From IMG/VR virus record IMGVR_UViG_3300035643_000008, positions 1 through 27,836 of that record: a stretch of 27,836 nucleotides of DNA, one strand, 5' to 3'. Under the pieces are notes generated by a model. That model ran no database searches. It had not been told where the DNA came from and worked only from the letters and a program-made list of their open reading frames with translations. The translations under genes and the position numbers were made by a program. The stretch comes from a virus. This document shows, in pieces, positions 20,792 through 25,408 of the stretch (within the stretch, counting starts at the first letter, position 1; every line of letters begins with the position of its first letter).

Positions 20792-22185
20792 CGGGTGACT
20801 GTGAAGTTCCTCATCACGGCGACTGTACGGTCAAACTGCTCTCGGATGATGCGGCGCCGTTGTTCCCAGAGGACATCGACCAGTGTTGGTACGGCTGCCT
20901 TCATCTTCTTGGTTCTTGGCTTGCTAACTCTTGGTTTCCTAACTTTCGGCGCCTTCGCCTTCGGCGCCTTCGGAGCTCGCGGTTGACCAGCAGCTTTCTT
21001 CGCGGCCGTCCGTGCTCGGCGGGCTGCTGCGGCGGCAGCTCTGGCTGCGGGCGTCCAGCCTGTCTCTATCAGTTGTTGTTCGAATTCCTCATCTGATAGC
21101 GGCTCCAACTCGTCCAACTCGTCATCTGACAGCATGTCGAATTCTTCTGAGTCATCGTCTCCTGGCGGAGCTGACTGTTCGCGCATCATCTCCATGAGTT
21201 TCTCCATCATCTTGATCGTCGCGTCGGGGTCGCCTGGGGTTTCAGGCTTTGTGATGATCGATAGGTCCTCGAACATGATGCCGACAGGCTTGTCGTCGAC
21301 CATGTCACGCGGCACGGCTCCGATTGAGACACCCAGCGCTTCCCCGGCCTTCACGAGATCCTGTGTTGCCGGATCGGTGACTTCCCCGACATACTCGACC
21401 GCTTGGTCGTCATCTGCGAACTCGCTGTCACGGACGAACCCAACATTCGGGTCGTTGCGGCTGATGATGCCTTGGATCGCTCTCCGAACGAGCGCTGAGA
21501 GCTGGTCGCCTTTGTCGGCGAGGTACTGCTTCGCTTCCTGAACGGTCTCGAGGTGATTGATGAAGATGGGCTTCTTCGCTAAGGTTCTCGCGGAGCGTAA
21601 GAGTTCATCCTTCGTGTACGGAATCTTATTCAGCGTCTTGCCGACCGTGATCGCAGCGCCCTGGATCAGGCGTTTGCCAGCTTGCAGCTTAGATTTGAAA
21701 GGCATCGTCCAGCTGAAGGCTTCCCGCATCTTCTTTGCCTTCGCTGTGTGGGGATGGTAGTGGCTCGCTGGGTGAGGATGTGGTGCTCCTTTCACGTGAG
21801 CGTGCGCGTGGCTATGGACAACGCCATGGCTTGGGTGGCCGACAGCGTGGCCGTGAACATGAGCGTGAGTTACGAGCACAGGCGGTTGGAGGCCCCGTTG
21901 GATCGCAGTCGTTATGTGGGCTTGGGCTGCCGCTTGCGCTTCGGTTGGGGCGACTCCTGCGGCTGCATGTCGGGCCAACCGCGCTTCCAAGGCAGCTGCT
22001 CGAGCCGCAGGCGTCCACCCGCGCTCCTTCAGAACCACACCTTCATCGGGTGAGAGCCCGCTTATGTCAGGAGGGAAGTGACGCTCCAAGGGGGCGCCTG
22101 CTGCTGGGGGTTGGCCGACGCCGCCTTGAGCATCCGCTGTCTGCTCCTGCTCTCTCAGTTTTCTCTTTCTCTTCTTCTTAATCAA
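20788..22185 (-). CDS. Prohead protease (S78-like) with histidine-rich insert
   Basis: A 465-residue protein with TTG start overlapping the portal stop. The protease core lies at about 160-340: KKPIFINHLETV (His211 as likely catalytic His), EYVGEVTDP, GVSIGAVPRD (Ser287 as likely nucleophile), and MFEDLSIITKPETPGDPDATI, as in S78-type prohead proteases that cleave scaffold and capsid arms. Odd features: residues 107-146 contain 15 His, mostly in H-x-H pairs; the motif GWTPAARAAA occurs twice (56-65 and 376-385), each preceded by E-R/T and followed by an Ala/Arg helix; and the C-terminal 80 residues are Lys/Pro/Ala-rich. The flanking extensions may act as a scaffold domain that is lost after maturation. 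Confidence 0.7.
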   Translation of the reverse strand: MIKKKRKRKLREQEQTADAQGGVGQPPAAGAPLERHFPPDISGLSPDEGVVLKERGWTPAARAAALEARLARHAAAGVAPTEAQAAAQAHITTAIQRGLQPPVLVTHAHVHGHAVGHPSHGVVHSHAHAHVKGAPHPHPASHYHPHTAKAKKMREAFSWTMPFKSKLQAGKRLIQGAAITVGKTLNKIPYTKDELLRSARTLAKKPIFINHLETVQEAKQYLADKGDQLSALVRRAIQGIISRNDPNVGFVRDSEFADDDQAVEYVGEVTDPATQDLVKAGEALGVSIGAVPRDMVDDKPVGIMFEDLSIITKPETPGDPDATIKMMEKLMEMMREQSAPPGDDDSEEFDMLSDDELDELEPLSDEEFEQQLIETGWTPAARAAAAAARRARTAAKKAAGQPRAPKAPKAKAPKVRKPRVSKPRTKKMKAAVPTLVDVLWEQRRRIIREQFDRTVAVMRNFTVTR

Positions 22186-23414
22186 CTTCCAAGACCTACT
22201 GGGTGATTCGCAGATGGATCTAGTGCTCGAATCTTCTCTGCGAGCGCTTGCCCGTTGGCTTCCGTAGGCGGACCGGTCGGAAGCGCTTGACTGGATGGAA
22301 GCGCTAGTGGAGGAGCTGGCATGGCGCCAGGTGGTAGCGGATCTAATTCTAGCAGCTGTCTGAGGAGGTTCTCGACCGCGAATCGTGTCTGAGGGCTGAT
22401 CATAACCTGGGCTGGGTTAAGCAGCTTCAGCAAATTGTCCATTTGTTGCTGCGGATCTTGGACCTCAGGTTCGCCGAAGATGAGTTCAGGCGTGAACTCT
22501 TCGTCAATGCCTTGCTGGATGATAAGCGGTTTGAAGATCAGGTCCTCCCAGTTTTCCTTGATGACTTCTTGGGTCGTCTGGATCTTCCTGTTCCAGGCTT
22601 CTTGCATGGCGGTTGCGGAGGCGTCGGAGACTCGGAACGGGACCATAAGCTGGTTGAGGTTCGGGTTCTGGAGGCCTGCGGTTACGGTTGACCGGAACTG
22701 AGTGACATATTCCTCGAAGCGTGCTCGCACATCGGGCGAGAATGTTTTCGCGTTGACTAGGAAGCTGCCAACCCAATCCTCATCAGGCTTGATCGTGGTG
22801 AGCTTCTGCGCCCATTCTTGGATGTCGCTTGGTTTCGGGGGAAAGTCCTTGTCGCCTAGCTGCCAAAGCATCTTCGGCGCCGCATACCGGCGCATGATGC
22901 GGACCATGTAATCCTCCATCTGCTGGAGGCCCCAGACATAGTCGAGGCATGGCTGGACGAGGCCCATGCCGTAGAAGTCTGCACCCACATAGCCGCCTGT
23001 TATGTTCGTTTTGAACCAGGCGATCTGTTCAGGCGCGAATTGTTTCCATTGACCCATGATGATCTGCGTGTAGCCTTTCGGCGGATCCGCGCCAGTGTAC
23101 ATGTCAGGCACGATACGCATCGTGCTGATAGGTAGCGGCTGAACTGTTACGAGGTTGCCGAGCTTCATGATCTTGAACGCGTCGTTTGGATCCTTCTCCC
23201 ATCCGTCGAAGCGTCGCTCGAGAGGACTATTTCCGTAAAGCGCCAGTTCACGCGCTATTCGAAGCATCATCACCTTCGCGTTGATCTTCTTCTCGTTGAA
23301 GTCCTGGCAGATATCGACTGCGCGTCGGGACGCGGTGGAATCATCATGCGCCTTCAAGTAGAAGCCTGGACCAATCGTCTGATCGGCCAGCTGCTCAATG
23401 CAGTAAGAGACCAT
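22182..23414 (-). CDS. Portal protein
   Basis: A 410-residue frame from ATG. Portal-like features: VSYCIEQLADQTIGPGFYLKA at the start, MLRIARELALYGNSPLERRF, LPISTMRIVPDMYTG, PEQIAWFKTNITGGYVGADFYGMGLVQPCLDYVWGLQQMEDYMVRIMRRY, the long stem helix region (RARFEEYVTQFRSTVTAGLQNP) and TAMQEAWNRKIQTTQEVIKENWEDLIFKPLI. The frame is open upstream to 23456 (VDWYRIEQIYRSFPM), sequence that clearly belongs to the portal, but no normal start exists there. The ATG at 23414 is therefore probably internal, and the true N-terminus lies in other frames upstream (see the next feature). The portal forms the DNA channel at one capsid vertex. Confidence 0.8.
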   Translation of the reverse strand: MVSYCIEQLADQTIGPGFYLKAHDDSTASRRAVDICQDFNEKKINAKVMMLRIARELALYGNSPLERRFDGWEKDPNDAFKIMKLGNLVTVQPLPISTMRIVPDMYTGADPPKGYTQIIMGQWKQFAPEQIAWFKTNITGGYVGADFYGMGLVQPCLDYVWGLQQMEDYMVRIMRRYAAPKMLWQLGDKDFPPKPSDIQEWAQKLTTIKPDEDWVGSFLVNAKTFSPDVRARFEEYVTQFRSTVTAGLQNPNLNQLMVPFRVSDASATAMQEAWNRKIQTTQEVIKENWEDLIFKPLIIQQGIDEEFTPELIFGEPEVQDPQQQMDNLLKLLNPAQVMISPQTRFAVENLLRQLLELDPLPPGAMPAPPLALPSSQALPTGPPTEANGQALAEKIRALDPSANHPVGLGS

Positions 23415-23633
23415 TGGGAAGCTGCGGTAGATCTGCTCAATCCGATACCAGTCAACCCTCGGCGGAACTCTGGCCGGCTAAGGTTCGCCAGCCTAAAGCC
23501 GGTATCCATACGTGTACCAGCCGCCAGGAACACCTAGAATCATTCCTTGAGCGACAGCTGGCTCCGCTTTCGGTTGGCCACGAATCGCTTCACGCAAACG
23601 CTGAATTATGCCCAGTCTCCCACCTCCTCTCAT
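23415..23633 (-). CDS. Displaced N-terminal part of the portal gene
   Basis: In the same frame as the portal body, an open stretch begins at ATG 23633 or, better placed behind GGAGGTG (23621-23627), at CTG 23615: GIIQRLREAIRGQPKAEPAV then AQGMILGVPGGWYTYGYRL, ending at TAG 23493. This is a portal-like N-terminus. Between this TAG and the portal body (GTT 23456) the body frame has a second TAG, while the +1 frame reads RLANLSRPEFRRG. Reading CTT, skipping the T of TAG, then stepping back one base after GGG (23456-23458) would give one continuous portal of about 477 residues. Sequencing indels, two recoding events or genuine damage are the alternatives. Confidence 0.5.
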
Positions 23634-23823
23634 TCGACCTTGGCCGGGGCAACGGCAGCTTCTCCATGTTTCACTCTTCCAAATCTAGTGATGAGCGGGA
23701 CTCCTTGACAGACGATCTCCACATTGCATAAGCCGCGCATCGATAGAGACAGGTTGGTGGAAGCTGGGACTCCGAGTGTTTGTCTTGAAGACGCATCTCC
23801 CTACGGCATGATGGACAGATCAA
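23630..23823 (-). pseudogene. Small zinc-ribbon gene split by a frameshift
   Basis: From TTG 23823 (the frame is open further upstream without a start) one frame reads ICPSCRREMRLQDKHSES, then LPPTCLYRC and runs to TGA at 23671. A -1 step after GCG (23735-23737) continues as GLCNVEIVCQGVPLITRFGR then VKHGEAAVAPAKVE to TGA 23630. Joined, the two give a plausible single zinc ribbon (C-P-S-C, then C-L-Y-R-C and L-C). Neither half alone is a complete module. The TGA at 23630 overlaps the ATG at 23633. Either an indel or a shift site is present. Confidence 0.4.
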
Positions 23824-23851
23824 CGAGTACCCGTCAGAAGCTGCAGCTGAT

Positions 23852-23968
23852 TCATGTCCATGCTCTACAGGCCGAGATGATCAGAGCAAGCAAAACTAGA
23901 ACAGCGGCGGCTGTGAGTAGACTGATGAACCAGCCTTTCGCAAACTCTTTCGCTGCGAATTGCATCAT
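23852..23968 (-). CDS. Tiny single-helix membrane protein
   Basis: A 38-residue frame with ATG five bases after the terminase stop. It is MMQFAAKEFAKGW, one hydrophobic helix (FISLLTAAAVLVLLALIIS), then CRAWT. GAGG lies about nine bases upstream. A short amphipathic start followed by one transmembrane helix is the form of small phage membrane proteins such as antiholins. Function unknown. Confidence 0.5.
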   Translation of the reverse strand: MMQFAAKEFAKGWFISLLTAAAVLVLLALIISACRAWT

Positions 23969-23973
23969 GTCGG

Positions 23974-24519
23974 TCAGCCTCTTCTAGACGCGCCTCTCAA
24001 ATCGAACAAGCCCGTTGTATCTCGTGTTCTCGATGCGTAGACGGCGAGTGCCACGGCCCAGAGGATGTCATCATGTGTACCTTCGGGGTGCGAGAACATG
24101 ATCTGGCCTGTTTTCGTCAGCTCGAATCTCTCAACATTGAGTTCGCCTGTGAGATCGACACCGTGTTCATCGTCGAAAGGGTAGGTGAAAAGGCGGTTTT
24201 GCATCAGTTGTTTCAGGTAGCCAAGGATCTCCTGCTTCGATTGTAGAGAGAGCATGATTCCCTCTACGTTCCGTATCCCCGCATTCTTCATGTCCTCGAC
24301 GAAGTACTCGCTTCCGGTTTGGTCTACGAGGATCTTCACGACACCGCCGAGTTTCTCGCTGATCTTCTTGACGGATCCCATGACAGATGCGTATGGGGTT
24401 TCGAGGGGCCACCGCTTGTAGTAGATGAGTTTCACTTGGTCGCCGTGTTTTGCGACTACCGCGACGACAGAGAAATCCTGTTTTTTGCCAAGATCGACCC
24501 CAAGATAGTAGGGTCCGCT
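23974..24519 (-). CDS. terL: Large terminase, nuclease part (+1 frame)
   Basis: The RNase H-like nuclease domain of the terminase, 181 codons counted from AGC at 24519. Motifs: YYLGVDLGKKQD (first catalytic Asp at about residue 9), VKILVDQTGSEYFVEDM (second, residue 66) and GTHDDILWAVALAVYA (third, residues 150-151). There is no ATG, GTG or TTG in this frame ahead of the first Asp; the first in-frame start (GTG 24435) would remove it. It must therefore be joined to the ATPase part by a +1 shift at TTC TAG C, which gives a smooth DEVFGF-SGPYYLGVDLG junction and a total of 477 residues, a normal large-terminase size. The nuclease cuts the DNA concatemer at the start and end of packaging. Confidence 0.8.
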   Translation of the reverse strand, partial: SGPYYLGVDLGKKQDFSVVAVVAKHGDQVKLIYYKRWPLETPYASVMGSVKKISEKLGGVVKILVDQTGSEYFVEDMKNAGIRNVEGIMLSLQSKQEILGYLKQLMQNRLFTYPFDDEHGVDLTGELNVERFELTKTGQIMFSHPEGTHDDILWAVALAVYASRTRDTTGLFDLRGASRRG

Positions 24520-25408
24520 AGAAGCCGAAGACCTCGTCGCTGAGGAATTGGCTGTCAGGGTCTATGCACCGCGTGATCAGGTCTTGGCTAAGGTAGGCTA
24601 ACTCGTCCTCGACAAACTCTGCTTCGAACTCACGTCGGAACCGTTCAAGTGGAAGATTGCGACGCATTTCCTCGATGAACGCTTCCGTGCCCAGTCCGGC
24701 CTCGATGACTTTCTTGTAGTCGATCTTGTGTTTCTTGAAGTCGGGACTCTGCACGAAATGATAGAAGACGCTGTTCTTTCCCCAAGGCGTAGAACTCACA
24801 ATCAGCGTGCCATCAGTGGTTTGAAGCATCGGGAAGAGCACGTTATAGAACACAAGCTCGTCGTCACGGAAGAAGGCGGCCTCATCGCATAGGACCTGAT
24901 GGGCCGTGTATCCTCTAAGGAGGTTCGGCGAGTTTGGGAGCGCTACGATCTGGCTGCCTTTCCTGAACCAGATCACCGTGCGTTGCATCTTGGAGATCAG
25001 TTCGCGCCTGACAGGTTTGGGCATGGTCATGATGAGGGCTTGTATGCGATCCATGAGGATCATGCTTTGGCGGAGACCAGGTGCCACGATGAGGCTTAGT
25101 GTGCGTTCATGCGTGCAGGCGTACCAGATCATTCGTGCAGCTAGCGTTGTTGACTTGCCTGACTGGCGAGGCCAGACGACGGCTATCCGTTTGCTTGTAT
25201 CGTCGAGCAGTTTCTCCTGATAGGGCTTGGCGACGAACCTGAGGAATGTCCTACCGAATATCGTCGCGGTCCTAGTGTTTTCAGGGGTGAGTTCTGGAAC
25301 GGTGGAAGCTACCGCCTGTTCTCGGAAGCTGCCTGACCTAGCTTTCCGTTCCGCTCTTTCCACGCGTCGATGCAGGCTTGGCCTCAGCAATCCCCAATTC
25401 CTCTTCAA
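24518..25408 (-). CDS. terL: Large terminase, ATPase part (zero frame)
   Basis: A 296-residue frame. Walker A is WPRQSGKST (79-87), Walker B VLCDEAAFF (172-180, Asp175-Glu176) and the coupling motif SSTPWGKNSVFY (205-216). The N-terminus is basic, and an adenine-binding-like element RFVAKPYQEKLL precedes Walker A. It ends at TAG 24518 with CIDPDSQFLSDEVFGF, exactly where the linker to the nuclease domain would lie. The frame overlaps the end of the putative small terminase gene by 71 bases. The motor drives DNA into the prohead through the portal. See the nuclease entry for the frameshift. Confidence 0.88.
   Translation of the reverse strand: MKRNWGLLRPSLHRRVERAERKARSGSFREQAVASTVPELTPENTRTATIFGRTFLRFVAKPYQEKLLDDTSKRIAVVWPRQSGKSTTLAARMIWYACTHERTLSLIVAPGLRQSMILMDRIQALIMTMPKPVRRELISKMQRTVIWFRKGSQIVALPNSPNLLRGYTAHQVLCDEAAFFRDDELVFYNVLFPMLQTTDGTLIVSSTPWGKNSVFYHFVQSPDFKKHKIDYKKVIEAGLGTEAFIEEMRRNLPLERFRREFEAEFVEDELAYLSQDLITRCIDPDSQFLSDEVFGF

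What the first reader, a model, noticed from the sequence alone, without database searches (positions are those of the whole stretch)
24480..24560. Large terminase split by a +1 shift exactly at a TAG
The ATPase frame ends GGC TTC TAG C and the nuclease domain continues in the +1 frame from the AGC that starts on the A of TAG. The nuclease frame has no usable start before its first catalytic Asp, so a second separate gene is unlikely. The +1 frame is open for only about 14 codons ahead of the TAG, which confines the shift to a small window. Skipping one T gives a natural linker. TTC TAG C resembles the arrangement of the bacterial prfB site (CTT TGA C).
Basis: partly seen in the sequence, partly recalled or inferred. 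Interest (0 to 1): 0.68.

Follow-up and report, generated by a model that had tools for sequence, protein, structure and literature searches.

The report
Packaging motor encoded as two genes
A tailed virus, probably of Bathyarchaeia archaea, really does encode its DNA-packaging motor (ATPase) and DNA-cutting nuclease in two overlapping reading frames, but relatives suggest these are two separately started genes, a split that arose several times in these viruses, rather than one protein made by a ribosomal frameshift.

Summary
On the minus strand the TerL ATPase frame (25408-24518) ends GGC TTC TAG, and the nuclease continues in the +1 frame. It is not a sequencing error: six further distinct IMG/VR sequences (L002, L004, L037, L038, L040, L041) share the split, ending FGF-stop (TAG or TAA) with the +1 frame open beyond, and both halves are under purifying selection. 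About 100 other relatives, including the sister L003, have one continuous terL.

The frameshift reading is poorly supported. The shift site is not conserved at RNA level, no downstream structure is conserved, and UUC cannot re-pair well in +1. Hosts are probably Bathyarchaeia, so the prfB/RF2 analogy does not carry over. Instead, all seven have a GGTG Shine-Dalgarno core 8-11 nt before an in-frame CTG or ATG in the nuclease frame (1 of 67 unsplit relatives). L040 and L041 have a nuclease with its own TTG. Further Bathyarchaeia proviruses have terL split at the same linker with ATGA/TTGA overlaps or SD-led ATG/CTG starts.

Best reading: recurrent fission of TerL into separate ATPase and nuclease genes; here the nuclease starts at CTG 24558, overlapping the ATPase gene by 41 nt. 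The start codon is inferred. A rare +1 fusion product is not excluded.

The parts
24518..25408 (-). TerL ATPase gene (TTG start, TAG stop 24520-24518), 296 aa, ending ...LSDEVFGF
   Evidence: ORF; Pfam Terminase_6N E=1.5e-17; phrog_7579 terminase large subunit E=4e-30; Walker A RQSGKST and Walker B VLCDE visible in alignment A3
23974..24558 (-). TerL nuclease gene in the +1 frame, 194 aa if started at CTG 24558; the domain itself begins at about 24519
   Evidence: phrog_5909 and phrog_5713 terminase large subunit; catalytic-type Asp motifs GVDLG, LVDQTG, HDD conserved in A1 and A4; start inferred
24556..24558 (-). inferred CTG start codon of the nuclease gene
   Evidence: same place in L002, L004, L038, L040, L041; ATG one codon later in L002 and L037
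24567..24571 (-). Shine-Dalgarno-like CGGTG, 8 nt before the CTG (weak here, -5.4 kcal/mol; -6.2 to -10.3 in the other six)
24518..24558 (-). 41-nt overlap of the ATPase and nuclease genes
   Evidence: follows from the rows above

Best explanation
TerL has undergone gene fission in the linker between its two domains. The ATPase is made from the first frame and stops at FGF-TAG (shown by sequence). The nuclease is a separate polypeptide initiated in the +1 frame at CTG 24558, guided by a GGTG Shine-Dalgarno core, overlapping the ATPase gene by 41 nt (inferred). The two proteins would re-associate at the portal as a two-subunit motor and headful nuclease (inferred). The same fission happened several times in viruses and proviruses of Bathyarchaeia.
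For: [AC]GGTG core plus ATG/CTG 8-11 nt downstream with the +1 frame open to the domain: 7 of 7 in the window clade, 1 of 67 in unsplit relatives. This virus's genes commonly use GAGGTG/AGGTG SDs, and its portal gene starts at CTG behind GGAGGTG (-16.8 kcal/mol), aligned with the TTG start of L003. L040 and L041: nuclease as its own TTG gene. A second clade (L042, L043, L095, L096): overlapping nuclease ORFs with own ATG or TTG. Bathyarchaeia genomes: L215 ATGA, L216 TTGA, L222 ATGA, L223 TTGA overlaps; L217 and L219 ATG; L218 CTG behind GGAGGTG (-16.4) exactly where L217 and L219 have ATG; L220 genes 1.5 kb apart. Split/unsplit changes at least 7 times on the ATPase tree. Both halves conserved. 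No RNA-level conservation at the stop and no conserved fold.
Against: The window has no ATG/GTG/TTG before the first catalytic Asp, and its own SD core is weak (-5.4). The seven window-type sequences are one clade, so 7 of 7 is not seven independent events. FGF-stop keeps its place while inserts of 3, 29 and about 85 codons sit after it, which a frameshift would also allow. A 41-nt overlap is longer than the 4-nt overlaps reported for efficient termination-reinitiation in archaea (PMC10666635). No expression data.
Confidence: 0.8

Rival explanations
1. Programmed +1 ribosomal frameshift at UUY-UAR: the ribosome skips one base and makes a fused ATPase-nuclease TerL, with a shorter ATPase-only product from normal termination.
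For: The stop sits at the same alignment column in all seven, followed at once by an open +1 frame. L002 has UUU-UAG, a re-pairable site. The window and L037 have fairly stable downstream folds, z -2.4 and -3.6. +1 frameshifting has been suggested in a haloarchaeal tailed virus, HSTV-2 (PMC8211752).
Against: Six of seven have UUC, for which +1 re-pairing to UCU is poor (own knowledge; CUU_U and to a lesser degree UUU_U are the known RF2 sites, PMC5009743). Gly and Phe wobble bases vary and there is no excess synonymous conservation. Folds are not conserved (z from -3.6 to +1.0). In L040 and L041 the +1 frame does not lead to the nuclease in one open frame. A conserved candidate start makes a shift unnecessary.
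Confidence: 0.13
2. A sequencing or assembly indel in an ordinary terL.
For: Single-base indels do occur in this family's contigs: L031 and L033 (again as L162 and L165; dataset 3300050342) have lone frame breaks inside the ATPase while near relatives are intact.
Against: The same break at the same place in six further distinct sequences from other samples, with different codons and inserts.
Confidence: 0.01
3. The window carries a decaying virus in which terL is a pseudogene.
For: The portal gene also shows two in-frame TAGs near its N-terminus; the window's SD core is the weakest of the seven.
Against: dN/dS against L002 is 0.10 (ATPase) and 0.16 (nuclease), and the same arrangement is kept by relatives at dS above 1.
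Confidence: 0.06

Closest known systems
Two-domain large terminase (TerL; T4 gp17 type, Pfam Terminase_6N plus RNase H-like nuclease)
   Same: Both domains, their order and their motifs are present; continuous relatives have both in one ORF of about 440-550 aa
   Different: Here the two domains lie in two reading frames, with a stop at the interdomain linker
Overlapping unidirectional gene pairs coding subunits of one complex (Huber et al. 2023, PMC10666635)
   Same: Two consecutive genes whose products must act together overlap; four of the other splits (L215, L216, L222, L223) have exactly the 4-nt ATGA/TTGA overlap
   Different: The window's overlap would be 41 nt, so simple termination-reinitiation is less likely and an own SD is proposed
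prfB (RF2) and antizyme +1 frameshift sites
   Same: A codon followed by a stop, with the remaining coding sequence in +1
   Different: UUC instead of CUU or UCC, no SD spacer of prfB type conserved, no conserved downstream structure, archaeal host, and a candidate start present

Membership tests
Programmed +1 ribosomal frameshift | 0-frame stop followed by conserved coding sequence in +1 | tested here: met
   seven sequences
Programmed +1 ribosomal frameshift | nucleotide-level conservation of the shift site | tested here: not met
   GGC/GGT/GGA, TTC/TTT, TAG/TAA; synonymous conservation 1.05-1.13 of background (sd 0.16) in the last windows
Programmed +1 ribosomal frameshift | conserved stimulatory element (downstream structure or upstream SD) | tested here: not met
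   fold z-scores from -3.6 to +1.0 with unlike structures; GAGG just upstream of the stop only in the window and L002
Programmed +1 ribosomal frameshift | no alternative start for the downstream frame | tested here: not met
   SD core plus CTG or ATG in 7 of 7, against 1 of 67 unsplit
Programmed +1 ribosomal frameshift | fusion product observed | not testable with these tools
   no proteomics held
Split TerL (two genes) | ATPase and nuclease domains complete and conserved in separate ORFs | tested here: met
Split TerL (two genes) | own ribosome-binding site and start for the nuclease ORF | tested here: inconclusive
   met in L040, L041, L217, L218, L219, L222, L223; in the window a CTG behind a weak SD core
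Split TerL (two genes) | two separate proteins made | not testable with these tools
   needs mass spectrometry

The most novel reading that the evidence does not exclude
A UUY-UAR +1 programmed frameshift in an archaeal virus sets the ratio of ATPase-only to full TerL, alongside or instead of independent initiation, so that the motor ring holds a controlled number of nuclease-bearing subunits.
Probability: 0.12. Interest if true: 0.72.

Novelty: new variant of a known kind. Interest (0 to 1): 0.45.

Why it matters
In well-studied tailed phages the packaging ATPase and the headful nuclease are one polypeptide, and how they are switched against each other is debated (own knowledge). A virus group in which they have come apart several times provides natural two-component motors in which stoichiometry and docking can be tested. 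It also warns that a +1 frame break at a stop codon, even a conserved one, is not by itself evidence of frameshifting: overlapping starts, including CTG, must be ruled out first. The split was not found described in the open-access library (a search for the phrase 'split terminase' gave no paper, and neither Bathyarchaeia virus paper that was searched mentions it).

Tried and rejected
Sense reading of TAG (amber suppression or pyrrolysine): coding signal does not continue past the terL TAG, the same stop is TAA in four relatives, and PylS is over its cut-off in only 3 of 257 Bathyarchaeia genomes. A four-base codon: considered from the sequence alone, but the changing fourth base (C, A, T) and TAA in place of TAG speak against it. 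Intron at the junction: there is no insert in the window, L002 or L038. Conserved downstream RNA structure: none. Source of the 85-codon insert of L040/L041: no PHROG match and no other IMG/VR copy. First scan of genome contigs with the nuclease alignment: no relative; the second, with the ATPase alignment, gave the host lead. Meiothermus phage MMP17, annotated 'terminase, ATPase subunit', proved to be full length.

Full report
Observation. The window is an IMG/VR virus record of 27,836 bases. On the minus strand the ORF 25408-24518 encodes a TerL ATPase (Terminase_6N, phrog_7579) and ends GTC TTC GGC TTC TAG. The nuclease domain (phrog_5909, phrog_5713) follows in the +1 frame, SGPYYLGVDLGKKQ, to a TGA at 23974. 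The statement that no start is available is not: CTG at 24558-24556 lies in that stretch.

It is real. A scan of viral contigs found 34 relatives of the ATPase, and scans with the nuclease and with a wider alignment added more. Seven distinct sequences (window, L002, L004, L037, L038, L040, L041) share FGF-stop with the +1 frame open immediately after it. The stop is TAG in three and TAA in four. In the window, L002 and L038 the nuclease domain follows directly; in L037 after three extra codons; in L004 after 29 extra codons; in L040 and L041 an 85-codon +1-frame stretch intervenes and the nuclease then has its own TTG start. About 100 other relatives are continuous through the linker. Trees put the seven together with the continuous L003 as nearest relative. 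Both halves evolve under purifying selection: dN/dS 0.06-0.16, the L002-L004 nuclease value being only a bound because dS is saturated. Contigs L031 and L033, with lone indels inside an otherwise normal ATPase, show what an error looks like in this family.

Frameshift or second gene? Three tests speak against a programmed shift. Synonymous sites in the last 13 codons and at the shift site are not more conserved than elsewhere in the gene (1.05-1.13 times background, sd 0.16). Downstream folds differ and range from z -3.6 to +1.0. UUC, present in six of seven, is a poor +1 re-pairing codon (own knowledge; the known RF2 sites are CUU_U and sometimes UUU_U, PMC5009743). One test speaks for a start: in all seven, [AC]GGTG stands 8 nt before CTG or 11 nt before ATG in the nuclease frame, which is then open to the domain; this holds in 1 of 67 unsplit relatives. 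GAGGTG/AGGTG is a common ribosome-binding core of this virus's genes, and its portal gene has a CTG start behind GGAGGTG. The Arg-Cys and Pro residues that create the core and the CTG belong to the ATPase frame, so part of the signal could be inherited protein sequence; the seven are one clade.

Host and recurrence. The second genome scan hit two Candidatus Bathyarchaeota MAGs, and 96 of 257 genomes of that class carry the ATPase, nearly always in a full-length ORF. Ten ATPase ORFs that looked short were fetched: one ends at a contig edge (L224), one is interrupted by an in-frame TAG inside the nuclease (L221), and eight are true two-ORF splits. L215, L216, L222 and L223 have ATGA or TTGA 4-nt overlaps. 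L217 and L219 start the nuclease with ATG in +1, and L218 with CTG behind GGAGGTG at the very place of that ATG. In L220 the genes lie 1.5 kb apart. A separate viral clade (L042, L043, L095, L096) is also split, with own ATG or TTG. The split/unsplit state changes at least seven times on the ATPase tree (quick tree, with long branches). L218 is the best evidence that a CTG can start such a nuclease gene, since its near relatives have ATG there.

Conclusion. Fission of TerL into an ATPase gene and a nuclease gene at the interdomain linker is a recurrent feature of Bathyarchaeia-type tailed viruses. In the window the nuclease most likely starts at CTG 24558. Shown: the split, its conservation, selection on both parts, candidate starts, and recurrence. 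Inferred: use of the CTG, two separate proteins, their re-association, and the host of this particular virus. Not excluded: a minor +1 fusion product. The conserved FGF C-terminus of the ATPase may be a docking peptide; this is a guess.

Known or not. A search of the open-access library for 'split terminase' gave nothing. Bathyarchaeia virus papers describe TerL without mentioning a split. A -1 frameshift in haloarchaeal tailed viruses and a +1 case in HSTV-2 are reported as apparent (PMC8211752).

Noticed in passing
window 23466-23501 (minus strand), portal gene 22182-23615: Portal gene starts at CTG 23615 behind a very strong SD, but a 36-nt stretch absent from the only close portal relative (L003) holds two in-frame TAGs (23495, 23480) and contains inverted repeats (CCGGCT/AGCCGG); fold z only -1.5, no other IMG/VR copy. 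Bypass, readthrough, decay and error are all open.
   Followed up: partly
L040:2971-3222 and L041:5719-5970: An 85-codon +1-frame insert between ATPase and nuclease, 95% identical between the two, without a PHROG match or other IMG/VR copy; dN/dS 0.29 on few changes.
   Followed up: partly
L221, L227, L228, L229 (Bathyarchaeia genomes G019, G088, G071, G153): terL reading frames carry a TAG at the interruption; all four are TAG, e.g. FTLKIV[TAG]CDE in L229 and LPNSL[TAG]LLRGY in L228. None of these genomes has PylS over the cut-off.
   Followed up: partly
genomes G061, G212, G218: The only 3 of 257 Bathyarchaeia-class genomes with a PylS match over the curated cut-off.
   Followed up: no
window 23628-23974: Between nuclease and portal lie short ORFs, one a possible membrane protein (MMQFAAKEFAKGWFISLLTAAAVLVLLALIISACRAWT) and one with a CPSC pattern.
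   Followed up: no
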